Part shown: one piece after another, positions 6,781 through 40,371 of the stretch
Numbering within the stretch: position 1 is the first letter of the stretch
Layout: each line of letters begins with the position of its first letter
Assembly: GCA_945879625.1 (NCBI GenBank)
Contig: CAMCVA010000005.1
Span: 96,038 to 160,037 of the forward strand
Direction: 5' to 3'
DNA: 64,000 nt
Source: Flavobacterium psychrophilum
GTDB lineage: Bacteria; Bacteroidota; Bacteroidia; Flavobacteriales; Flavobacteriaceae
The notes under the pieces: generated by a model
Databases searched by the model: none
What the model was told of the DNA's origin: nothing
The model's input: the letters and a program-made list of their open reading frames with translations, nothing else
Translations under genes and position numbers: made by a program

Positions 6781-9700
6781 TTATCGTTTTAAGCTAAAGT
6801 GCGCTTTGAATATTTTGTTAATACCATCTTCGGTATAGGTGATGGTGAACCAATAATCATCTGAAGGCAAATTTTCTCCACCAAAGCTTCCGTCCCATCC
6901 TGTTCCACTTGGGGTAATGTCTTTCAACAATCTTCCGTAGCGATCAAAGATGTGAATCAAAGCAGTAGATTGGGCTTGCAAATCGATGATGTTCCAAGTA
7001 TCGTTAAATCCGTCGCCATTTGGCGTAAAGAATTTAGGATAATTTACCAACAACGCTTCTGAATAGGTTTGTCCACAGCCGTTTTTGTCACGCACAGTGA
7101 TGATGTGAGTACCAGACGATACGTTATCAAATACATTGCTATCTTGAAACGCGCCATTGTCTAATTGGTATTCGTAATCGCCACCCACGCCTACAGCTGT
7201 TACTGTAATTACTTGGTTGCTGTCAAATGCATCGCTCACTTCGTAGCTAATAACCGCTGGCATAGAAGGCAATACGCTGATTACTTTGGGTTGAGAATAA
7301 CATCCAGTAAGGGTGCTTTTTACTACTAAAGTATACTCACCAGGCGTTTCAACTACATAATTTCCTTGAGTTCCTACTACGTCACCGGCTTCGTTGTACC
7401 ACTCAAATGTATGAGTAGCAGGATTCAATCCAGAAGTGATGGTATAGGCACTTAATAAGGTATTGGTGTTGCTGTCGTAACATACGGTACCATTGGTAGC
7501 GAATGATTCGGGCGCTTTGTTTACGGTAATGTTAATCGCTTTGATGTCGTAACAAGTCGTGGTCAAGTTGTTGATCACTTTTACATATACGGTATGCAAA
7601 TCGGTTGAGGTGATTGCGTTGATTCCAGCAGCAGCGTCGTTGGCTGAAGCATAGTATGTAACCATAAATTCTTCGCCAATTTGTGAACCCAAAATACTGG
7701 CATTCATGGTAGTTAAATCAAACTGAGTATATCCGTCGTTGATCGCATCGGCATCACAAACCGTAGTTTGCGTAGTACTTACTGGGTAGGCCACTGGAGT
7801 ATCGATGATAGTTACCACAAATGAACTTTGATCGTAACAAGCCGAAGTCAAGTAGGGTGATTGAGCATAGATATATACAGTTTGAGTGTGCGATAAAGTA
7901 TGTCCAGGATACATTCTAATGCCTGATCCGTTAGGTCCAGTGTAGAAGTTTCCAACAGTCAAGGCAGGCAATACAAATGTTTCACAAGTAGTTACATTAG
8001 GTAATTCATCAACATTGAACACATATACGTGAAATTCTTTTTCGTCCGAACAGTTAGGCACCGAGTTGGTTTGAGCATACATATAAACTGTTTGTGAAGC
8101 TGTAATTGCATCTCCCGCTTGGTAAGCAGTTCCAGTTCCGTTTGGTTGTGAGAAGTAGTTTCCTACAGCCAAAGCAGGTAAGATATAGGCGTTACACACT
8201 TTTTCGTCGGCTTTTGGCGCAACTACTGGTGTAGGGTTTACAGTTACAACAAAGCTGTGCTCATCTGTACAGTTAATACGTGCACCCGATTCGATGTATA
8301 CATACAGAGTAGCAGAAGCGGTCAATACATCACCTGCTTGCAATTGGGTATTGCTTGGGTTATGTGGTCCGTTTGGTCCGGTATAGTAATTTCCGTTGGT
8401 TAAGGCAGGTAAGGTATACGAATCACAGTTGGTTACATTGGCAGGTGCATCGGCAGTGATTGAGAAAATCGTGATGGTAAAACTATTTTCAACAGTACAA
8501 AAAGGTGCAGTAGTTGTAGTAGCAAAGATGTAAATGGTTTGCGTTTGTGTAATTACTGTTCCAGCAGCCAATTGAGTACCAGTTCCGTTTGAACCAGTAT
8601 AGTAATTTCCGTTGGTTAATGGTGTCAAGGTGTAGTTGTTGCAAATGTCGATGTCAGAACGAGAGTCAATCAAGGGTTTTGGTGCAATAGTCACAGTAAA
8701 ACTGTCTTGGTTGTAACAAGTAGGTGACGAACGTTTAAAGATGTAAAGCGTTTTATTGCTTGTAATTATATCACCCGCATAATAACGAGTTCCTGTTCCG
8801 GCTACGCCTGAGTAATAGGCACCACTAGTCAAGGTAGGTAAGGTATAGCTTTCGCATACAGCTACGTCTTCCAACTGATCAATTACCGGTTGAGAAACAA
8901 TTACACTGAAGCTCAAGTTTTGAATGCAAGCCGCATTTCCAGCTGAAGGGATGTGAATATATACACGACGTGGAGTCGAGATTACAGTTCCAGCTGGCAA
9001 CTCAGTTCCTGTACCGTTTGGTCCAGTGTAGTACGATCCGATAGGTAAAGCAGGCAAGGTGTACGGGTTACATTGCAATACATTAGCAGGGGCAGTAAAT
9101 CCGATAAACACTTTAAATAATGTTTGAGACACACAGTTGTTTGGCGCACCTGTAGTAGCAAAAATGTAGATAGTTTGCGTTTGTGTGATAACTGTTCCAA
9201 CAGCTAATTGCGTTCCACCTCCGTTTACTTCGGTGTAGTAGTTTCCGCCAGTCAAGGCAGGTAACGTATAAGAAATACAATCAAATACATTGGGTAAAGT
9301 TGGTACTTCTGGTTTTGGAACGATTGTTACCGAAAAGTTGGTACTGATTTGACAAAATGGGGCAACCAACGATTGGTAAAACAAGTGAATGGTTTGTGAT
9401 GTAGTAAGCACCCCGCCAGCATTTAGTCGGGTACCACCACCCAATGTTTGGGTGTAGTAGTTTCCGTAGCTCAAGGTTGGCAAGGTGTAGTTTCCGCAAA
9501 AAGTGCCGCTAGCAGGAGTAATGGTATTGGGGTTAATTACCGTTACTTTAAAGCTGCTTCCTGCTCTACAGCCTTCAGGTCCATCAGGTTGGTTGTAAAT
9601 ATAAATGGTTTGTGTTTCTGTAATCACGGATCCAACGGCCAAAGGGGTTAATGAACCTGTGGTATCAGAAAAATAGCTTCCGTTAGTCAACACAGGTAAC

Positions 9701-11397
9701 GTATAGCTTGCGCAAACCAAAACGTTTGGCAATACATCAACTGCTGGTAATGGGTTTACCGTAATGGTAAAACTACCGGTGATGAAACAGCCCATATCAG
9801 AAATGTTCTGAATGCGAATGTAAATTACTGTATTGTCTGTTGCGGTGTAGCCATTGGTTGGCAAGGAATTTGTTCCTGCATCAGCATAGGCTTGAGAAAT
9901 ATGATAGCTAATTACGTTTAAGCTTGCTGATTGGGCGCCCAAAATAGCAGCATTCTGTGCAGAGAATGAAAAGATGTTGTTGTTTTGGGTAATTGATCGA
10001 GCACACTTTACCATAGCTGGCGCTGCAACTACGAATGGCGCTGGTGCAGTGAGTAATTGAAAGGTTCTTACTGCGTAACAGTTGGTTTCAATGTTGTTTA
10101 CTCTTACATAAACAGTCACTCCAGGAACCGTGTTGTAATTTAATGGCAATGCATTGGTTTGCGCATCGGCATCGGCTTGAGTTGCATAATACGCCACAAC
10201 AGTTGAAGCATCAATAGCAGGATCCAATTGAGCGGCTACTTCTGCTGTATTTTTTGATAAATCATAAGTAAATGTAGTGGCATCCGATTCGCACAAGTAT
10301 AAATTTTTTGGCAATGGAAAACTAAATTCAGGGTAGTATTCTACAATTACCATATCTGTTTCAGGCAAGCAACCTGCCATTGGTTTGATGTAGGTAATGC
10401 TGTATTCGCCAGCTTGTGTAACGAGTAATGTTGGGCCTGAAGCACCAGCAATAGCTACTCCATCTTTTTTCCAAGAAAAAGTATACAAGGCAGGATCTAA
10501 GTGCGAATCCAAAAGAGTTGTAGTTCCAAAACACAATGCTGTTTGGCTAGAAGTAGTTTGGTTGGTTCCCAATACATCTTGTCCAATGCTGAAACTGTCT
10601 GATGCAATGAAGATGGCCGAATCTGATCCGAAATCGCCACGGTCAGCAATAACCAATTTAATGTGGTAGGGCGTGTTTGGGATTAATACAGCTGAAGCAT
10701 TCAATAATTTGGTTTGGCCATTAAAGTTGGTAGCCGATTGGGCTGCAGCCGATCCTCCGTTGTAGGTTCCAAAGTAGGCTGCATTTTGTGAGGGGCAAGA
10801 AGAGTTGTACAAGAAGTCACGAATCGTAACTACAGAAATAGGTAGGTTAGTTCCCGGAACAACTGCTAGGTTTACAGTTTCTCCGGTTAAGGTGTTTGTC
10901 AATAAAAATGCAAAGGCATCTGAAAATTGGCACTGAAAATTTCCGTATTCTTCTGAGGCAAAAAGGAAATCAAAACTAAAGTTTGGGGCAATAGGGGTGA
11001 AATCGAATTCTAAGGCAGTAGCATTGGTAGAATTCATTGGAATTCCTGCTTGAGCCAAGGTGTTTTCTAAAGAGGCATCTCCAGACCAGTTGGTTGTTCC
11101 GTCATTTAGCATCGCTGTGTTAGGTCCAGCAGCATGCGCAACATCACCAGTACTTAAGATTACTCCCGAATTCATTGGGAAGTTCGGATTGGTATTTTGA
11201 AAAAATCCAATTCCATTAGTTGAATTTGCCTGTGTTCCGGTTTTCCAAGTAATGTTACTGGCGGCCACACAAGGCGAGTTGATCAAAACTGCATTCACCA
11301 GTTGGGGAACTGTGTAGGTTGATGTGTTTACAGAAATGGCTTGACCAAATGAAAGTGAGGTAAGACTTAAAGCGAAAATGAGTAGTAGTTTTTTCAT
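6781..11397 (-). CDS. Giant modular surface protein, T9SS type-B (gliding motility-associated) C-terminus
   Basis: A 1538-residue exported protein. It has a signal peptide (MKKLLLIFALSLTSLSFGQ), then a choice-of-anchor-L-like domain at about 20-270 (FASEEYGNFQCQFSDAFAF is diagnostic), an Ig/PKD-like part, and nine related ~70-80-residue modules from about 550 to 1200. Each module starts C-x-x-YTLPALT, continues GNYYTGPNGTGT and ends TQTIYIFA, with a second cysteine near the end, which suggests one disulfide per module. The end (FFTPNGDGFNDTW, IFDRYGRLL, GWDG) is the CHU_C type-B sorting domain. Such proteins are secreted by T9SS and act as surface adhesins. The gene stands alone; 267 bp of AT-rich DNA separate it from argS. 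Confidence 0.92.
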   Translation of the reverse strand: MKKLLLIFALSLTSLSFGQAISVNTSTYTVPQLVNAVLINSPCVAASNITWKTGTQANSTNGIGFFQNTNPNFPMNSGVILSTGDVAHAAGPNTAMLNDGTTNWSGDASLENTLAQAGIPMNSTNATALEFDFTPIAPNFSFDFLFASEEYGNFQCQFSDAFAFLLTNTLTGETVNLAVVPGTNLPISVVTIRDFLYNSSCPSQNAAYFGTYNGGSAAAQSATNFNGQTKLLNASAVLIPNTPYHIKLVIADRGDFGSDSAIFIASDSFSIGQDVLGTNQTTSSQTALCFGTTTLLDSHLDPALYTFSWKKDGVAIAGASGPTLLVTQAGEYSITYIKPMAGCLPETDMVIVEYYPEFSFPLPKNLYLCESDATTFTYDLSKNTAEVAAQLDPAIDASTVVAYYATQADADAQTNALPLNYNTVPGVTVYVRVNNIETNCYAVRTFQLLTAPAPFVVAAPAMVKCARSITQNNNIFSFSAQNAAILGAQSASLNVISYHISQAYADAGTNSLPTNGYTATDNTVIYIRIQNISDMGCFITGSFTITVNPLPAVDVLPNVLVCASYTLPVLTNGSYFSDTTGSLTPLAVGSVITETQTIYIYNQPDGPEGCRAGSSFKVTVINPNTITPASGTFCGNYTLPTLSYGNYYTQTLGGGTRLNAGGVLTTSQTIHLFYQSLVAPFCQISTNFSVTIVPKPEVPTLPNVFDCISYTLPALTGGNYYTEVNGGGTQLAVGTVITQTQTIYIFATTGAPNNCVSQTLFKVFIGFTAPANVLQCNPYTLPALPIGSYYTGPNGTGTELPAGTVISTPRRVYIHIPSAGNAACIQNLSFSVIVSQPVIDQLEDVAVCESYTLPTLTSGAYYSGVAGTGTRYYAGDIITSNKTLYIFKRSSPTCYNQDSFTVTIAPKPLIDSRSDIDICNNYTLTPLTNGNYYTGSNGTGTQLAAGTVITQTQTIYIFATTTTAPFCTVENSFTITIFSITADAPANVTNCDSYTLPALTNGNYYTGPNGPHNPSNTQLQAGDVLTASATLYVYIESGARINCTDEHSFVVTVNPTPVVAPKADEKVCNAYILPALAVGNYFSQPNGTGTAYQAGDAITASQTVYMYAQTNSVPNCSDEKEFHVYVFNVDELPNVTTCETFVLPALTVGNFYTGPNGSGIRMYPGHTLSHTQTVYIYAQSPYLTSACYDQSSFVVTIIDTPVAYPVSTTQTTVCDADAINDGYTQFDLTTMNASILGSQIGEEFMVTYYASANDAAAGINAITSTDLHTVYVKVINNLTTTCYDIKAINITVNKAPESFATNGTVCYDSNTNTLLSAYTITSGLNPATHTFEWYNEAGDVVGTQGNYVVETPGEYTLVVKSTLTGCYSQPKVISVLPSMPAVISYEVSDAFDSNQVITVTAVGVGGDYEYQLDNGAFQDSNVFDNVSSGTHIITVRDKNGCGQTYSEALLVNYPKFFTPNGDGFNDTWNIIDLQAQSTALIHIFDRYGRLLKDITPSGTGWDGSFGGENLPSDDYWFTITYTEDGINKIFKAHFSLKR

Positions 11398-13505: not shown

Positions 13506-14393
13506 ATGAAAAATTACCTAATTCTTGCAGCTATAACCCTGTTCTACAGTGTTTTTACTTCCTGTACTGCCGACAAAGCACAGCCCAAAGTAACTTCCGA
13601 ACTAAGCGATATTATTACTTCAGGTACGTGGAAAGTTACCCATTATTCCGATCATGGTGATATTGAAACTTCCCATTTTTACGACTACACATTTACCTTT
13701 ACTACCGATGGTCGAATTGTAGCCAACGATGGACAATCTCCTATAAATGGATTTTGGATTGTAACCACAAACAACGATAGTCCATTATATACTGCTCCAG
13801 CAACAGGAGACGATTCTCCCAATGATCCTCTAGATTTTAATATTGCATTTAGCAGTCCACTTGATTTTAATGATATTCAAGACGATTGGGATGTTGTTTC
13901 AAAATCAGAAAATGTAATTGTTTTAATTGACGAAAACCTAATTGATCCCACTCGAACGGATTACTTGACCTTTGAAAAAATTCGTCCTTTTGAACTGGGG
14001 TCGGTACTGCAAGACGGAACTTGGGAAGTGGCTCATTATTCAGACCGAGGCGATAATGAAACCATTAATTTTGCTGGCTATTTATTTACATTTAGTGCCG
14101 ATGGAACCGTATTGGCAAATCTAAATAATGTACCTGTCTCAGGTAATTGGTCTATAACGACTAACCACAATAGCCCATTGTATACTGCTCCTGCAACGGC
14201 AGACGATTCACCAACTGATCCTGTAGATTTTAATTTGATGTTTCCAATGCCACCAAACTCTTTACTATTCAATGACATCGAAGACGATTGGGATGTTGCA
14301 TTTGTATCAGATTCAACCATCATGCTTAAAGATGTGGTTGCCGCAAATCGGTTGTTGGACGATTACCTCGTACTCCGAAAAAAACAAAATTAA
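13506..14393 (+). CDS. Putative lipoprotein with two tandem copies of an unrecognised ~125-residue domain
   Basis: A 295-residue protein. The N-terminal signal has a plausible lipobox ending at Cys20 (FYSVFTSCTAD). Two repeats follow, about 33-160 and 165-290. Each has GTW(K/E)V(T/A)HYSD, then a (T/L)FTF(T/S)(T/A)DG(R/T) strand, then NxSPLYTAPAT, DDSP and finally NDI(Q/E)DDWDV. The layout resembles the small lipocalin-like lipoproteins of flavobacteria, but I do not recognise a named family. It is a single gene closed by a strong terminator. Probably exported and membrane-anchored; function unknown. Confidence 0.75.
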   Translation: MKNYLILAAITLFYSVFTSCTADKAQPKVTSELSDIITSGTWKVTHYSDHGDIETSHFYDYTFTFTTDGRIVANDGQSPINGFWIVTTNNDSPLYTAPATGDDSPNDPLDFNIAFSSPLDFNDIQDDWDVVSKSENVIVLIDENLIDPTRTDYLTFEKIRPFELGSVLQDGTWEVAHYSDRGDNETINFAGYLFTFSADGTVLANLNNVPVSGNWSITTNHNSPLYTAPATADDSPTDPVDFNLMFPMPPNSLLFNDIEDDWDVAFVSDSTIMLKDVVAANRLLDDYLVLRKKQN

Positions 14394-14410: not shown

Positions 14411-14439
14411 AAAAAGCCAGTAGTATCTACTGGCTTTTT
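14411..14439. terminator. Bidirectional rho-independent terminator
   Basis: A perfect 13-bp inverted repeat AAAAAGCCAGTAG / CTACTGGCTTTTT with a three-base TAT loop. It serves both the lipoprotein gene (+) and the six-gene minus-strand operon that ends at yceI (14452). Confidence 0.92.
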
Positions 14440-14451
14440 GCTTTTAAGTCG

Positions 14452-14994
14452 TTATTTGCTTTGTAATTCGCCTGCAAAAATCACCTTAATGTTTTCGGCA
14501 AATTTTTCTTTCACCAACGAAGGGATTTCAATTTTATAATCTTGGGCATGCACGGTAAAAGTGCAATTGGCATTTACTTTTACACCTGCCAAAACCAAAG
14601 TCATTTTGGTTTTCACTTTTTTGGTTACGCCGTGTATGGTCAAATCACCTTCCACTTCATAGGTTCCTTTGCTGGCTAATTTAGCGGCATCAAAATTGGC
14701 TATTTGTCCACTAAATTTTGCATTGGGGAATTTGGAGGTTTCCATGTAGTTTTCGTTGTAATGCTCTTCCATCAAAGGCACTTTAAACTGAAACTCATTG
14801 ATTAGTGCGTTCACTGCAAATTTTCCGGTAGTGGCATCCAAAATAGCCGAAACCTTTTTGTTTTTGGCCGCTATTTCTACCATATTGGCTACCGAGGCAT
14901 CAAATTTTAATTCGGCAGTACGCGACAGGTATTTTTGTGACCAACCAAAATGGGTCAACACAAGACAGAGACACAGCAAAAATGAATTTTTCAT
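14452..14994 (-). CDS. YceI-family periplasmic protein
   Basis: A 180-residue protein with a signal peptide (MKNSFLLCLCLVLTHFGWSQ). It is a YceI-like lipocalin-fold domain: SRTAELKFDA, FKVPLMEEHYNENYMETSKFPNAKF split around a typical MxxxHxxENYM core, GTYEVEGDLTIHGVTKKV and a C-terminal IKVIFAGEL. YceI proteins bind polyisoprenoids or amphiphiles in the periplasm, and in E. coli yceI sits beside a cytochrome b561 gene. Here it is the last gene of a six-gene envelope operon, 6 bases after the cytochrome gene and in front of a strong terminator. Confidence 0.9.
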   Translation of the reverse strand: MKNSFLLCLCLVLTHFGWSQKYLSRTAELKFDASVANMVEIAAKNKKVSAILDATTGKFAVNALINEFQFKVPLMEEHYNENYMETSKFPNAKFSGQIANFDAAKLASKGTYEVEGDLTIHGVTKKVKTKMTLVLAGVKVNANCTFTVHAQDYKIEIPSLVKEKFAENIKVIFAGELQSK

Positions 14995-15000
14995 ACCCGT

Positions 15001-15357
15001 TTAATTTTCAAGATAGCCCTGAAATTTCCAGTCTTCAATAATTTTTATGGTTACTGACGGCATACGGCCAGATGTTGGCATAACGTCACCACAACTACCC
15101 TGTATTCTACAAATTAGGTTTTTATTCCCAGGAGCATCACAGGCGTTTTTAACTTCGTTGTAGGTTTCAAGATAGGGTTCTTGATTGTCAGTTGCATTGT
15201 GGCAGCTCACACAATTGTTTTGCATAATTCCTTTTACATTGGCATTGTAGGTTGGGTTGGCCACCTCTCCTACAAGCTCTGAATACGTTTTTGATTCACA
15301 CGAAAACATCAACATTCCAAGCAAAACAAAAATACTTAAGTGATATACTTTTTTCAT
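15001..15357 (-). CDS. Small c-type cytochrome, probable lipoprotein
   Basis: A 118-residue exported protein. The signal sequence ends near FSC at residue 20, a possible lipobox. A single heme-attachment site CVSCH is at 49-53, and the candidate sixth ligand is Met93 or Met99 in VMPTSGRMP, the usual place for a distal Met. Three further cysteines (73, 83, 89) may form a disulfide. It should be a one-electron carrier attached to a membrane facing the periplasm or cell surface. The gene is 2 bases from the beta-barrel gene upstream and 6 bases from yceI downstream, so it belongs to the same message. Confidence 0.87.
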   Translation of the reverse strand: MKKVYHLSIFVLLGMLMFSCESKTYSELVGEVANPTYNANVKGIMQNNCVSCHNATDNQEPYLETYNEVKNACDAPGNKNLICRIQGSCGDVMPTSGRMPSVTIKIIEDWKFQGYLEN

Positions 15358-15359
15358 AA

Positions 15360-16223
15360 TTAAAATACTCTATACATGTTAAATCCAAAATACAATCCTT
15401 TTGTGCGATCAGTCCAACTGCCTGATCCATTGGTGTAATACCCCACATCATTCATGGGTTGGCTGGTGGCAAACAACATCTGAAATACGTGCCCACCGGT
15501 TTCAATATCTAAGCCCAACGCCAAGGGATTGTCATAAGTGCTGTTTACAGGGTTTGTTCGTGCGGCATATTCTACATTCACACTCAAGCGCTTGCTTACT
15601 TTGCATCTTCCGCCCGTAGCAATCAAATATTCATTATTTCGCTCTCTTTCTGGGTCATATAAATTTTTATGCACGTAAATTCCATTGATTTCCAATGAGA
15701 TTCGTTCGTTTATTTTTCTAGACACTAAAAGTTGGGTTGTAAACGCCAATCGGTCCTTGAATTGAATGGATGGAAACTGTTCTTTTTTCAATTCAGTATT
15801 GATTTCCATGCTGTTATAAGCTACAATAGTTACTGGAAACCCATCCACCTCTTGATTGGCTAATTTTACTTTTGATGTGAGTTCATACAATTTATCATAT
15901 GTATGACGAGAAGCCGAGAGTGTCCACCACTTGGTTGCCCCATATACTCCACCAATTTTGGCATAGGCGTTATCCAAGCCAAAAAAATTATTTGTGCCTT
16001 CTTTGAGGTTGCCAAAACGGTGAGAAACTACAAAGTACCATTCGCCTTTTGCAGCTAGTTTAGTAGATTGCATGTTGCAAATTTGTAGCCCCTTGAATGC
16101 TGCTATTTCAATTTGCTTTTCTGCAGGTCCCGCCGATTTTTCTAATTCGTTAAGTAAATCGTCTTGGGCGTATACTTGTCCTAATGCAAATAGAGCAAAC
16201 AAGGAAATAGTGAGTTGTTTCAT
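15360..16223 (-). CDS. DUF5777-type outer-membrane beta-barrel protein
   Basis: A 287-residue protein with a signal peptide (MKQLTISLFALFALGQVYAQ). The body is alternating aromatic and polar strands with an early WYFVVSHRFGNLKEGTNNFFGLDNAYAKIG-type block (split here: FVVSHRFGNL, FFGLDNAYAKIG) and the C-terminal FGFNMYRVF ending in an aromatic residue, as in outer-membrane barrels. I recall this family as DUF5777, uncharacterised and mostly Bacteroidetes. Its place between a cytochrome and an OB-fold protein suggests it carries or docks the electron- or ligand-transfer parts at the outer membrane; that is inference. Confidence 0.8.
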   Translation of the reverse strand: MKQLTISLFALFALGQVYAQDDLLNELEKSAGPAEKQIEIAAFKGLQICNMQSTKLAAKGEWYFVVSHRFGNLKEGTNNFFGLDNAYAKIGGVYGATKWWTLSASRHTYDKLYELTSKVKLANQEVDGFPVTIVAYNSMEINTELKKEQFPSIQFKDRLAFTTQLLVSRKINERISLEINGIYVHKNLYDPERERNNEYLIATGGRCKVSKRLSVNVEYAARTNPVNSTYDNPLALGLDIETGGHVFQMLFATSQPMNDVGYYTNGSGSWTDRTKGLYFGFNMYRVF

Positions 16224-16229
16224 GGTGAA

Positions 16230-16628
16230 CTAATTATCGGTTTTTAATAGCGTGCATTGATCAAATTTAAATTCGCCAAACAACTCGTCATAGCCTACAA
16301 ATCGCCCTTTTATGGTGGTTTTTTTGTTGGCAACAACCGGTAGCGTAGCAGTTTGAAACGAGCAGATTACTTGGTCATCCAACTTTATTTCTGTTGGCGA
16401 AACAACTGTTGCGACACCTATTATAGTGATTGTTTTGCTGTTGTATTTGGCGTTGGCTTTCGGGGTATCGGCGTTAAATTCATTGACCAAATCGGAAGTG
16501 CTCAGGGTATAAACAGCTTCTTCGGTTGCTACATTTCTTTTGCCACCATAAAACACATAATTATAAACTACTACAGCGGCAACAACACCTAAAACCAGCA
16601 GGATCAGGCCACTTTTTTTAATTAACAT
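16230..16628 (-). CDS. Membrane-anchored OB-fold (tRNA_anti-like) protein
   Basis: A 132-residue protein. One N-terminal transmembrane segment (residues about 8-27) is followed by a basic GGKRN and then an OB-fold-like domain: LVNEFNADTPKANAKYNSKTI (split L-x-x-EF, A-x-AKY, K-T-I-T-I-I-G), VVSPTEIKLDD and TTIKGRFVGYDELFGEFKFDQC. This matches the bacterial tRNA_anti-like family that sits outside the cytoplasm and is not known to bind tRNA. Function unknown. It is 3 bases after the DOMON gene and 6 before the barrel gene. Confidence 0.75.
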   Translation of the reverse strand: MLIKKSGLILLVLGVVAAVVVYNYVFYGGKRNVATEEAVYTLSTSDLVNEFNADTPKANAKYNSKTITIIGVATVVSPTEIKLDDQVICSFQTATLPVVANKKTTIKGRFVGYDELFGEFKFDQCTLLKTDN

Positions 16629-16631
16629 GAG

Positions 16632-17399
16632 TTAGTTCAGTATAATTTTTTTCACCGTTTTGTCAGAATCAGCGTTCACTTCAAGGTAATATACCCCTTT
16701 TGTAAGGTCACTCAAATCGAGTGTGTTGCTGCTAAAATTATCGTCGGTGTAGTTCCAAGTTTTAATTAGCTTCGCTTGGTTGTCAAAAAGACGAATAGTT
16801 TCAATAGTAAAATTTGCTGAATTTTTCAAAGTAATTAGTCCATTAGTAGGATTAGGGCTCACGCTTAGTGAGTTGTCTAAGGTGTACGTTTCGGTACCCA
16901 AGGTGGTAAAAGTGAGTGTTACAATTCCTTTGGAGCTGTGTTTAACGCTCAAATCTAAGGCCGGTCCTACACTCCAAACGATATTCAAGGAACTGGCATT
17001 GAAATCAAACACATGATCGTTGGCATCACCCGTATTAAATGGTCGAGAAATAACCAAGGTTCTGGTAGTTCCAGCTACCGTATTGCTCTCTAGTGTTAAA
17101 TTGTTTTGCGCATCAGTAATGGGTTGCACGTGCGTGGTAGTAGAAAAGGAACGATCAAGCAATGTGGTGCTAAAGCTAATGACGTCTTTATTTCCCTGCA
17201 TAGATGAACAATCTAAACCGAGAGACATCCAACGCGTAGACGGACCAGTTAGGGTAATGGTTGCCAAGGATGTCGCTTGGTTTAAACTCATTTTAACGGT
17301 CATCGTTCCAATTGTAGTTACTGCAGTTTCTTTAATTTGTGCGCTGGCTGAAAGGCAAGAGGCCAAGGCAATGAGTAAAAAGGTGTAATTTTTTTTCAT
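16632..17399 (-). CDS. DOMON-domain protein with T9SS type-A sorting domain
   Basis: A 255-residue exported protein: signal peptide 1-20, a DOMON-like domain about 25-165 and a T9SS type-A tail about 178-255 (LSVSPNPTNGLITL, IRLFDNQAKL, KGVYYLEV, KKIILN). DOMON hallmarks are WMSLGLD, the DR after a strand (82-83), and SRPFNTGDANDHVFDF followed by IVWSVGPA. Met67 (CSSMQGN) and His154 (VKHSSKG) occupy the places where cytochrome DOMON domains such as that of cellobiose dehydrogenase hold heme b. So this is a candidate surface-exposed b-type cytochrome or sugar/heme binder. Part of the six-gene envelope operon. Confidence 0.8.
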   Translation of the reverse strand: MKKNYTFLLIALASCLSASAQIKETAVTTIGTMTVKMSLNQATSLATITLTGPSTRWMSLGLDCSSMQGNKDVISFSTTLLDRSFSTTTHVQPITDAQNNLTLESNTVAGTTRTLVISRPFNTGDANDHVFDFNASSLNIVWSVGPALDLSVKHSSKGIVTLTFTTLGTETYTLDNSLSVSPNPTNGLITLKNSANFTIETIRLFDNQAKLIKTWNYTDDNFSSNTLDLSDLTKGVYYLEVNADSDKTVKKIILN

Positions 17400-17411
17400 A
17401 AAGTTGGTTGT

Positions 17412-17957
17412 TTAATTTGATAGATAGATGATTGATTCTGTATTTTTAGAAAAGGTGGCGTAATCCAATGCTGTTCGGCTGTCTACGTCTTTGATGTTGC
17501 GGTTTGCACCGGCGTCGACCAATAATTTTACTATTGGATTCCGGTTAAAAAATGCGGCATAAATGAGGGCTGATTTTCCTCCTTTATCCACCTGATCCAA
17601 ATCGGCTTTTTTGGCAATAAAGTTGGCCACTAAGTTGCTATTGTTGGCCATCACAGCAGCCATCAAGGCAGTTCCCATGCCCGAATTGTGGTTGATATTT
17701 TTGGTGTGATTTAGTAAATACTGGGCAACCGCTTCGTTGTTGCGGTAACAAGCAAGTAATAATGGGGTAGAGCCTCTGTCGTCTATGCTTTCTATTCCAG
17801 ATGGATTTTTTTGGTGTAACGCCTCTATTTCCTGCAGCGAACCATTGCGAGCTATATCAAATACAGTTCGTTCTTGCGCCAAAGTTGAAGTCCAAGAAAA
17901 GCTTAAACTCAAACAAAAGAACAATAAAAAAAGCGGGGAAGTTCGCGATGATTTCAT
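17412..17957 (-). CDS. Exported ankyrin-repeat protein, first gene of envelope operon
   Basis: A 181-residue protein with a signal peptide (residues 1-27, ending STLAQ) and about four ankyrin repeats, e.g. DDRGSTPLLLACYRNNEAVAQYLL, split as GSTPLLLACYRN, then GMGTALMAAVMAN, GGKSALIYAAFFNRN and DSRTALDYATFSKN. Periplasmic ankyrin proteins are known to support catalase activity in pseudomonads (AnkB type), so a redox or heme-linked role is possible. It leads the minus-strand operon; the next gene starts 12 bases on. Conserved repeat fold is sure, partner unknown. Confidence 0.85.
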   Translation of the reverse strand: MKSSRTSPLFLLFFCLSLSFSWTSTLAQERTVFDIARNGSLQEIEALHQKNPSGIESIDDRGSTPLLLACYRNNEAVAQYLLNHTKNINHNSGMGTALMAAVMANNSNLVANFIAKKADLDQVDKGGKSALIYAAFFNRNPIVKLLVDAGANRNIKDVDSRTALDYATFSKNTESIIYLSN

Positions 17958-17998: not shown

Positions 17999-18006
17999 CA
18001 AATATA
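17999..18006 (-). promoter_or_regulatory. -7 element TATATTTG of the envelope redox operon
   Basis: Forward CAAATATA, i.e. a perfect TATATTTG on the minus strand, 41 bases upstream of the ankyrin-protein ATG at 17957. No convincing -33 TTTG lies 17-23 bases further. It is the only good promoter candidate seen for genes 17957 to 14452. Confidence 0.45.
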
Positions 18007-39672: not shown

Positions 39673-40371
39673 CTAATTCAATTTGGCACGCAATTCCGTT
39701 TCGCTCATGAATCCGCTGTGTTTCCAAACTTCTTTTTGGTTGTCGTAGTAAAACAAAGCAGGAAGTTCTTCAATTTTGAGTTGGTTGATGAGCGTTTTGT
39801 GTTCGTCGGCATTGAGGCGAACTATAGCGATTTTTCCGGCCATTTCTTTTTGAATTTGCAACACATAAGACGTCATTTTTTTGCAAGGAGCACACCATTC
39901 GGCATAAAAATTCACCAAAATTTTCGGATTCGCTTTCACGAGTTCCTCATATTCTTGGCTGCACATGCCTACAATTTTACTGTTGGGCTCGGCAAAACCG
40001 GCTGCGTTCCATTTCAAGATGCCGCCGTTGAGTTCGACTATTTTTGAAAAACCCAATTCAGCCAATCTTGCGGCTGCTTTTTTGCTGCGACCACCCGAAA
40101 GACAATACACAAATACCGGTTTCGATTGGTCTAAATCCTTGACTACTGAATCAAAATTTGATCCGTTCCAATCCAGGTTTTGTGCGCCTTCTATATGCTG
40201 ACTGTTGTATTCCTCTTCGGTGCGCACATCGAGCAACTGCGGCTTGGGCGATTGCTTGAGTTCATACGCAAATTGATTGGCCGCAACCGATTCAACTTGA
40301 CTCGCTTGTTGGCTGTGACAAGCCATAATCAAAGTGAGGCACAGCAGGAAAGTGAGGTATTTTAGTTTCAT
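39673..40371 (-). CDS. Rhodanese-thioredoxin fusion lipoprotein
   Basis: A 232-residue exported fusion. A lipoprotein signal with LIMAC at residues 14-18 is followed by a rhodanese domain (about 30-120; active loop YCLSGGRS with the Cys) and a thioredoxin domain (about 125-232; WCAPC redox site and cis-Pro in ELPALF). It would act at the periplasmic face, in sulfur transfer or disulfide chemistry. It is the first gene of the operon ending in murB, a surprising companion for sugar and cell-wall genes. Confidence 0.92.
   Translation of the reverse strand: MKLKYLTFLLCLTLIMACHSQQASQVESVAANQFAYELKQSPKPQLLDVRTEEEYNSQHIEGAQNLDWNGSNFDSVVKDLDQSKPVFVYCLSGGRSKKAAARLAELGFSKIVELNGGILKWNAAGFAEPNSKIVGMCSQEYEELVKANPKILVNFYAEWCAPCKKMTSYVLQIQKEMAGKIAIVRLNADEHKTLINQLKIEELPALFYYDNQKEVWKHSGFMSETELRAKLN

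What the first reader, a model, noticed from the sequence alone, without database searches (positions are those of the whole stretch)
14452..17957. Six-gene envelope operon combining ankyrin, DOMON/T9SS, OB-fold, DUF5777 barrel, cytochrome c and YceI: candidate new electron or heme transfer system
All six minus-strand genes are separated by 12, 3, 6, 2 and 6 bases, start after a TATATTTG box and end in a perfect 13-bp hairpin. Every product has a signal peptide or TM anchor. Two look like heme proteins (CVSCH cytochrome; DOMON with Met67/His154), one is an outer-membrane barrel, one is a lipid-binding YceI fold (linked to cytochrome b561 in E. coli), one is exported by T9SS. Parts known separately could form a periplasm-to-surface redox chain with a quinone-like carrier (YceI), an electron carrier (cyt c), an outer-membrane port (DUF5777) and a surface acceptor (DOMON). 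I know of no described system with this set. Function is inference.
Basis: partly seen in the sequence, partly recalled or inferred. Interest (0 to 1): 0.78.

Follow-up and report, generated by a model that had tools for sequence, protein, structure and literature searches.

The report
Outer-membrane electron-transfer gene module
Six neighbouring genes of a Flavobacterium-like bacterium belong to a widespread, apparently undescribed set that pairs an outer-membrane barrel with small electron-carrying proteins, and it probably moves electrons at or across the bacterium's outer membrane.

Summary
The operon is real: six ORFs as stated, gaps 12/3/6/2/6, ending at a perfect 13-bp hairpin; the TATATTTG box alone is no better than chance. 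The DUF5777 barrel occurs in 98 of 247 Bacteroidota genomes. Of 111 barrel loci with full flanks, 92 have YceI within 2.5 kb (control zone 3.5-6 kb: 1) and 90 a CX2CH/CX4CH protein (control: 3). The carrier varies: c-type cytochrome, Rieske protein or cupredoxin. Seven genomes encode cytochrome and barrel as one ORF. The DOMON protein models as the cellobiose-dehydrogenase cytochrome fold, keeps Met and His in 102 of 102 relatives, and ends in a T9SS sorting domain. A redox module is thus well supported, but its core is barrel + carrier + YceI; ankyrin, OB and DOMON are additions. The barrel is predicted 12-stranded, probably too narrow to hold a cytochrome. Six of its seven most conserved strand positions (two His, three Phe, one Arg) are inferred to face lipid on adjacent strands 11-12-1. 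I favour a membrane redox station using a YceI-carried prenyl lipid or quinone, extended to the surface by DOMON in Flavobacteriaceae. No electron transfer is shown. My literature searches found no description.

The parts
17412..17957 (-). exported ankyrin-repeat protein, 181 aa (accessory)
   Evidence: Pfam Ank_2 E 9.8e-25; signal peptide by eye; homologues near 5 of 111 sampled barrel loci, directly before DOMON in L071, L075, L084, L086 and L109 as well as in most of the window's close relatives
16632..17399 (-). DOMON heme-b-type cytochrome domain with T9SS type A sorting domain, 255 aa; predicted ligands Met67 (17199-17201) and His154 (16938-16940)
16230..16628 (-). membrane-anchored OB-fold (tRNA_anti-like) protein, 132 aa (accessory)
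   Evidence: Pfam PF12869 E 1.6e-09; anchor by eye; near 25 of 111 sampled barrel loci, control zone 0
15360..16223 (-). DUF5777 12-stranded outer-membrane barrel, 287 aa (core); conserved patch H68 (16020-16022), F70, H245 (15489-15491), F247, F281, R285 (15369-15371)
15001..15357 (-). small monoheme c-type cytochrome lipoprotein, 118 aa (core electron carrier); CVSCH at 15199-15213, lipobox LMFSC by eye
   Evidence: heme motif CX2CH or CX4CH in 122 of 122 family members; near 90 of 111 sampled barrel loci, control zone 0; fused to the barrel in 7 genomes
14452..14994 (-). YceI isoprenoid-binding lipocalin-type protein, 180 aa (core)
   Evidence: Pfam YceI 60.1 bits, cut-off 23.7; near 92 of 111 sampled barrel loci, control zone 1
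14411..14439 (.). 13-bp perfect hairpin, probable terminator shared by convergent genes
   Evidence: the terminator scan lists it on the + strand; on the - strand its 3' arm itself ends in TTTTT and one more T follows
17999..18006 (-). TATATTTG, possible Bacteroidetes -7 box (recalled consensus)
   Evidence: present, but the pattern is not enriched over shuffles
13506..14393 (+). convergent lipocalin-like lipoprotein with two repeats, 295 aa; possible associated gene
   Evidence: Lipocalin_4 E 0.0011, below cut-off; its cluster (c11, 14 proteins in 12 loci, the window included) lies 3-5 genes from the barrel and inside the operon chain in L057, L062 and L067

Best explanation
The operon is the Flavobacteriaceae form of a redox module found across much of Bacteroidota. 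Core, by gene content: a DUF5777 outer-membrane barrel; a small one-electron carrier on its periplasmic side (here a monoheme cytochrome c lipoprotein, elsewhere a Rieske protein or cupredoxin); and YceI, whose family binds isoprenoids including ubiquinone-8. Inferred mechanism: the carrier docks on the barrel (as the natural fusion suggests) and exchanges electrons with a redox-active prenyl lipid, probably menaquinone, that YceI brings and that is bound at the barrel's conserved lipid-facing His/Phe/Arg patch. In Flavobacteriaceae a heme-b DOMON cytochrome exported by T9SS takes or gives electrons on the outer face; OB and ankyrin proteins are accessories. Shown by sequence comparison: gene set, order, fusion, carrier swaps, cofactor motifs, T9SS tail. 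Predicted: 12-strand fold, DOMON fold. Inferred: docking, YceI ligand, the patch being lipid-facing and a binding site, electron flow and its direction, and crossing of the membrane.
For: Barrel in 98 of 247 Bacteroidota genomes, 0 of 14 controls. In 111 loci with full flanks: YceI within 2.5 kb in 92 against 1 at 3.5-6 kb; C-family cytochrome 90 against 0; any CX2CH/CX4CH protein 90 against 3; Rieske 10 against 0; in 43 barrel clusters at 50% identity, a carrier in 39 and YceI in 32. Heme motif in 122 of 122 cytochromes. Rieske, EB_dh, NrfD and 4Fe-4S neighbours and cupredoxins. Cytochrome-barrel fusion with heme motif in 7 of 60 genomes of one order; the six relatives are 51-59% identical to the L167 cytochrome part. 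DOMON fold and ligands. Patch: six of the seven lowest-entropy strand positions among 70 dereplicated barrels are assigned to the outward side of strands 1, 11 and 12. YceI family binding of isoprenoids and ubiquinone-8: PMC9113575 and PMC8981238 (passages).
Against: I found no biochemical datum for any part of this set. 8 of 111 loci show no carrier within 2.5 kb even after counting the L167 fusion, and 19 of 111 no YceI by my profile, one of which (L136) has a YceI that the profile missed. Outward orientation is inferred from strand parity and hydrophobicity; no coordinates could be measured, and part of strand 12's conservation could be a BAM recognition signal. A T9SS-tailed carrier was noted in only 11 of 111 loci, so crossing of the membrane is not general. 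DOMON folds need not bind heme (DBH, recalled). Other YceI ligands are not all redox-active (PMC9113575 passages).
Confidence: 0.5

Rival explanations
1. Antioxidant system: cytochrome (or its substitutes) re-reduces a YceI-bound quinone that quenches lipid peroxyl radicals in the outer membrane, the barrel being the membrane docking point; a functional counterpart of Burkholderia BcnA (YceI) with LcoA (cytochrome b561).
For: BcnA-LcoA precedent for a YceI plus cytochrome pair, with the authors' proposal that LcoA re-reduces BcnA-bound ubiquinone (PMC9113575 passages). YceI core and lipid-facing patch. COX1 is found in all 98 barrel genomes and in 236 of 247 overall, which fits oxygen-using bacteria but is nearly uninformative. 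Lipocalin-like neighbours.
Against: No b561 among the six genes. A T9SS-exported DOMON is not needed for it. Catalase, peroxidase and other stress genes were not searched for.
Confidence: 0.22
2. Direct protein-only electron conduit from periplasm to surface: cytochrome c to barrel to DOMON, for extracellular electron acceptors or donors.
For: Predicted carriers on both sides in Flavobacteriaceae. T9SS-tailed carriers recur in different chemistry: DOMON (L071, L075, L084, L086, L109; tail by alignment, and by Pfam for L075), cupredoxin (L057, L067), heme-c motif proteins (L155, L156 over the T9SS cut-off, L126 under it, L151 by eye). Cytochrome-barrel fusion.
Against: Barrel predicted 12-stranded, so a cytochrome inside is unlikely; monoheme carriers cannot span the membrane; T9SS-tailed carriers noted in only 11 of the 111 loci, by hand.
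Confidence: 0.17
3. Reductive supply for polysaccharide oxidation: DOMON, like the CDH cytochrome, feeds LPMOs at the surface.
For: DOMON matches the CDH cytochrome fold. Cellvibrio Cbp2D joins YceI-like and cytochrome c domains, and its X183 cytochrome activates LPMOs (PMC8981238 passages).
Against: LPMO_10 (PF03067) in 1 of 247 Bacteroidota genomes; other LPMO families were not searched.
Confidence: 0.02
4. The barrel is an ordinary small-solute or metal/heme porin, and the redox proteins and YceI are only co-transcribed.
For: Among the nearest folds are small porins such as KdgM and NanC; heme- and metal-binding partners.
Against: Co-location across barrels down to 20% identity (median 29% to the window), fusion with cytochrome in 7 genomes, and carrier swaps. 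No TonB-dependent receptor among the six genes.
Confidence: 0.09

Closest known systems
BcnA-LcoA (YceI lipocalin plus cytochrome b561), Burkholderia cenocepacia, PMC9113575
   Same: A YceI protein genetically linked to a cytochrome; isoprenoid/quinone proposed as redox cargo.
   Different: Here a cytochrome c, Rieske protein or cupredoxin stands in place of the inner-membrane b561, and an outer-membrane barrel is a regular partner.
Cbp2D/Cbp2E of Cellvibrio japonicus, PMC8981238
   Same: YceI-like (X158, ubiquinone-8) domain, in Cbp2D with two monoheme c domains, in exported proteins.
   Different: Fused to CBM2; no barrel described in the passages read; role in polysaccharide use. LPMO_10 is absent from 246 of 247 genomes sampled here.
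MtrCAB and other porin-cytochrome conduits (recalled)
   Same: Logic of periplasmic cytochrome, barrel, and surface cytochrome.
   Different: Monoheme carriers instead of multiheme wires; 12-strand barrel instead of a very large one; homology of the parts was not searched for directly.
Cellobiose dehydrogenase cytochrome / DOMON b-type cytochromes
   Different: Stand-alone, with a T9SS tail instead of a flavin dehydrogenase.
KdgM/NanC small porins; FapF; LpxR and OMPLA
   Same: Barrel fold; OMPLA and LpxR also place function on the lipid-facing wall (recalled).
   Different: About 10% identity; no shared catalytic motif was tested.

Membership tests
DUF5777 (PF19089) | profile match over the cut-off, full length | tested here: met
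   265.4 bits, cut-off 23.1, profile positions 1-247 of 247
DOMON heme-b cytochrome (CDH type) | DOMON/CDH-cytochrome fold | tested here: met
DOMON heme-b cytochrome (CDH type) | Met and His axial ligands | tested here: met
   M67 102/102; a His in the aligned segment 102/102. That these are the CDH ligand positions (Met65/His163) is recalled; the listing names an M65H mutant
DOMON heme-b cytochrome (CDH type) | binds heme b | not testable with these tools
   needs expression and spectra
T9SS type A cargo | C-terminal sorting domain | tested here: met
c-type cytochrome | heme-c attachment motif conserved | tested here: met
   of 121 family proteins 84 have CX2CH and the other 37 have CX4CH; the L167 fusion has CX4CH
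c-type cytochrome | match to a curated cytochrome c family | tested here: inconclusive
   only sub-threshold Pfam hits, best E 0.034; PDB sequence search gave only weak c3 hits, best E 0.44
YceI | profile match over the cut-off | tested here: met
   60.1 bits, cut-off 23.7; best PDB sequence match is BcnB-type YceI 5ixg, E 0.0037 (identity of 5IXG as BcnB from PMC9113575 passages)
YceI | binds isoprenoid or quinone | not testable with these tools
   known for other members (PMC9113575 passages)
BcnA-LcoA system | linked cytochrome b561 | tested here: not met
   none of the six genes is b561; not searched for elsewhere in the window or in other loci
Porin-cytochrome (Mtr/PCC) conduit | multiheme cytochrome | tested here: not met
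   one heme-c motif in the window cytochrome; among 121 family proteins 83 have one CX2CH, 1 has two, 37 none (these have CX4CH); a few members are multi-motif, for example L095 with three
Porin-cytochrome (Mtr/PCC) conduit | very large barrel (20+ strands, recalled) | tested here: not met
   12 strands predicted, pLDDT 92.6

The most novel reading that the evidence does not exclude
DUF5777 is a new kind of outer-membrane redox protein. Its outer wall, at the seam of strands 11-12-1, holds a membrane quinone or other prenyl lipid at an invariant His/Phe/Arg patch. Interchangeable carriers (cytochrome c, Rieske, cupredoxin) serve it from the periplasm and T9SS-exported heme-b, copper or heme-c proteins from the surface, so that electrons cross the outer membrane through a lipid-soluble carrier and not through a heme wire.
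Probability: 0.2. Interest if true: 0.92.

Novelty: new variant of a known kind. Interest (0 to 1): 0.7.

Why it matters
If right, two fifths of sampled Bacteroidota (98 of 247) carry a redox module at the outer membrane that the paper searches made here found nowhere in print. It would give a role to an unassigned barrel family, explain why YceI sits beside cytochromes, and name specific residues (H68, H245, R285) and a natural fusion with which to test whether electrons are handled at an outer membrane without multiheme wires.

Tried and rejected
LPMO reduction as the general role: LPMO_10 in 1 of 247 genomes. A bis-His heme inside the barrel (note): the two invariant His fall on the lipid-facing parity, and their separation was estimated by hand from the strand register, not measured, to be too large for shared ligation; dropped. 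COX1 co-occurrence: nearly universal (236 of 247), so almost uninformative. My first DOMON count (21 within 2.5 kb) was inflated by T9SS tails and cupredoxins; it was replaced by hand-checked DOMON proteins, giving 5 in the sample. The DOMON, cupredoxin and T9SS heme-c sets were picked by hand near the barrel, so their zero in the control zone is not a test. The C, YceI, OB and ankyrin profiles were trained by iteration on the same ORF set, so they are not independent of it, but they were applied alike to both zones; the Rieske, EB_dh and c28/c37 sets are BLAST clusters of all ORFs, and the CX2CH/CX4CH count is a plain pattern. My YceI profile missed at least one YceI (L136_9, Pfam 34.2 bits), so 92 of 111 is a lower bound. 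Promoter box: not enriched. ANK hits to Legionella Ank models are far below cut-off, shared repeats only. Most chain neighbours (239 proteins outside the six families) were not scanned against Pfam; only chosen representatives were. Rows dropped: of 119 fetched sample loci, L168 (same as L016) and L070, L096, L129 (no barrel found by my script), leaving 115; then 4 edge-truncated loci (L059, L098, L158, L166), leaving 111. The seven weakest barrel matches were not fetched. Paper searches with no relevant hit: DUF5777, PF19089, YceI+DOMON, YceI+Rieske+cytochrome c+Bacteroidetes, DOMON+type IX secretion, YceI+Flavobacteri+cytochrome+operon, EET+Bacteroidetes+T9SS+cytochrome, DOMON+outer membrane+heme+Bacteroid; judged from listings. 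PMC5429918 (passages) only lists a YceI gene in an iron-limitation expression table.
Full report
What is there. The window holds six tightly packed minus-strand genes at 14452-17957, with gaps of 12, 3, 6, 2 and 6 bases: exported ankyrin (A), DOMON with a T9SS tail (D), anchored OB fold (O), DUF5777 barrel (B), small cytochrome c lipoprotein (C), YceI (Y) (export signals by eye). A perfect 13-bp hairpin follows at 14411-14439. The TATATTTG box at 17999-18006 is present but the pattern is no commoner than in shuffles. The genome is Flavobacterium-like: the closest barrel relatives found are in Flavobacterium MAGs.

Is the set conserved? Near relatives: 19 loci. The complete order A-D-O-B-C-Y is in 9 of 19; L018 and L019 show A-D-O-B before the contig ends; L014-L017 lack A; L007, L010, L011 and L013 are partial. 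Across the phylum: DUF5777 is in 98 of 247 genomes and 0 of 14 named controls. I fetched 119 barrel places; 115 were usable and 111 had 2.5 kb on both sides. Within 2.5 kb of the barrel, against a control zone at 3.5-6 kb in the same loci: YceI 92 against 1; C-family cytochrome 90 against 0; any CX2CH/CX4CH protein 90 against 3; Rieske cluster 10 against 0; OB 25 against 0; ankyrin 5 against 0; EB_dh cluster 5 against 0. YceI is a lower bound, since L136 has one that my profile missed. Counting hand-picked cupredoxins, DOMON and T9SS heme-c proteins too, 102 of 111 have a carrier, and the L167 fusion makes 103; eight have none that I found. In 43 barrel clusters at 50% identity, 39 have a carrier and 32 YceI. 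YceI itself is common (213 of 247 genomes), so it is adjacency, not presence, that counts. So the core is barrel + carrier + YceI, and the six-gene set is a Flavobacteriaceae elaboration. L109 carries all six genes in another order (O-B-C-Y-A-D), and L075, L084 and L086 carry B-C-Y-A-D, which suggests that A-D joins the core as a unit, although D also occurs without A.

The carrier is interchangeable. All 121 C-family proteins have a heme-c motif, CX2CH in 84 and CX4CH alone in 37, and so does the fusion of L167. In 11 of 115 loci a Rieske-cluster protein is near the barrel, and in all but L055 of these no C-family protein is within 2.5 kb; one representative was scanned (Pfam Rieske E 4.2e-11). 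Cupredoxins stand in the chain in L057, L067, L118, L128, L133 and L148; all six match PF00127 over its cut-off. In five loci an EB_dh protein (heme-b domain, recalled) precedes C-B, some with NrfD and 4Fe-4S proteins nearby. L001 has a cytochrome only 30% identical to the window's although its other five proteins are 80-92% identical.

Fusion. L167 encodes cytochrome c and barrel in one 421-aa ORF. A search of 60 genomes of its order, with its own among them, found six more such ORFs at 52-56% identity without internal stops; all seven keep a CX4CH motif in the N-terminal domain. As the N-terminus of such barrels is normally periplasmic (recalled), this puts the cytochrome on the periplasmic face.

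Mechanism. I infer that the periplasmic carrier docks on the barrel and exchanges electrons with a prenyl lipid or quinone supplied by YceI at this patch, and that the surface DOMON extends the path in Flavobacteriaceae. YceI proteins have been found with octaprenyl compounds and ubiquinone-8, and a YceI-cytochrome b561 pair protects against lipid peroxyl radicals in Burkholderia (PMC9113575, abstract start in the listing and passages). A YceI-like domain and cytochrome c domains are joined in Cbp2D (PMC8981238, passages). The antioxidant reading and the trans-membrane conduit reading share the core and cannot be separated here. The LPMO reading is unlikely (LPMO_10 in 1 of 247).

Relation to known systems. 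It works like a porin-cytochrome conduit only in outline and fails that family's defining features (monoheme, 12 strands). It resembles BcnA-LcoA in pairing YceI with a cytochrome but lacks b561 among its genes. I file it as a new variant of a known kind (YceI-cytochrome / outer-membrane redox systems), with a more novel reading stated separately. Paper searches in the open-licence PMC library found no description; most subscription papers, and preprints, were not searchable.

Noticed in passing
window 13506-14393 (+): A two-repeat lipocalin-like lipoprotein, convergent with the operon; relatives (cluster c11, 12 loci with the window) lie 3-5 genes from the barrel and inside the operon chain in L057, L062 and L067.
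   Followed up: partly
L061, L074, L077, L105, L115, L118, L128, L133, L135, L143, L147, L148; L075, L084, L086, L156: An ECF-sigma gene (one representative confirmed by Pfam) plus an anti-sigma/OMP-like gene (by eye) stand in the barrel chain in 12 loci, and a Crp-family regulator (Pfam on L084_9; same cluster in the others) in 4; possible regulation of the module.
   Followed up: partly
L124, L127, L130, L131, L136, L141, L142, L145: A variant in which my profile found no YceI (L136 has one by Pfam) places the cytochrome-barrel pair near EB_dh, NrfD-cluster, 4Fe-4S-cluster and second cytochrome c genes in various combinations; L141 also has a COX1-family protein in the chain.
   Followed up: partly
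window 15001-15357 (-): The window cytochrome has three extra cysteines (C73, C83, C89) before the possible Met93 ligand (by eye).
   Followed up: no
L063, L095, L122: Long or multi-motif members of the C family: L095 carries CALSGCH, CSTSGCH and CQGCH in one protein.
   Followed up: no
window 39673-40371 (-): Rhodanese and thioredoxin domains fused in one lipoprotein-like ORF (Pfam 72.4 and 72.8 bits).
   Followed up: partly
window 6781-11397 (-): A 1538-aa exported repeat protein whose C-terminal end resembles a T9SS type B (CHU_C) tail (read by eye).
   Followed up: no
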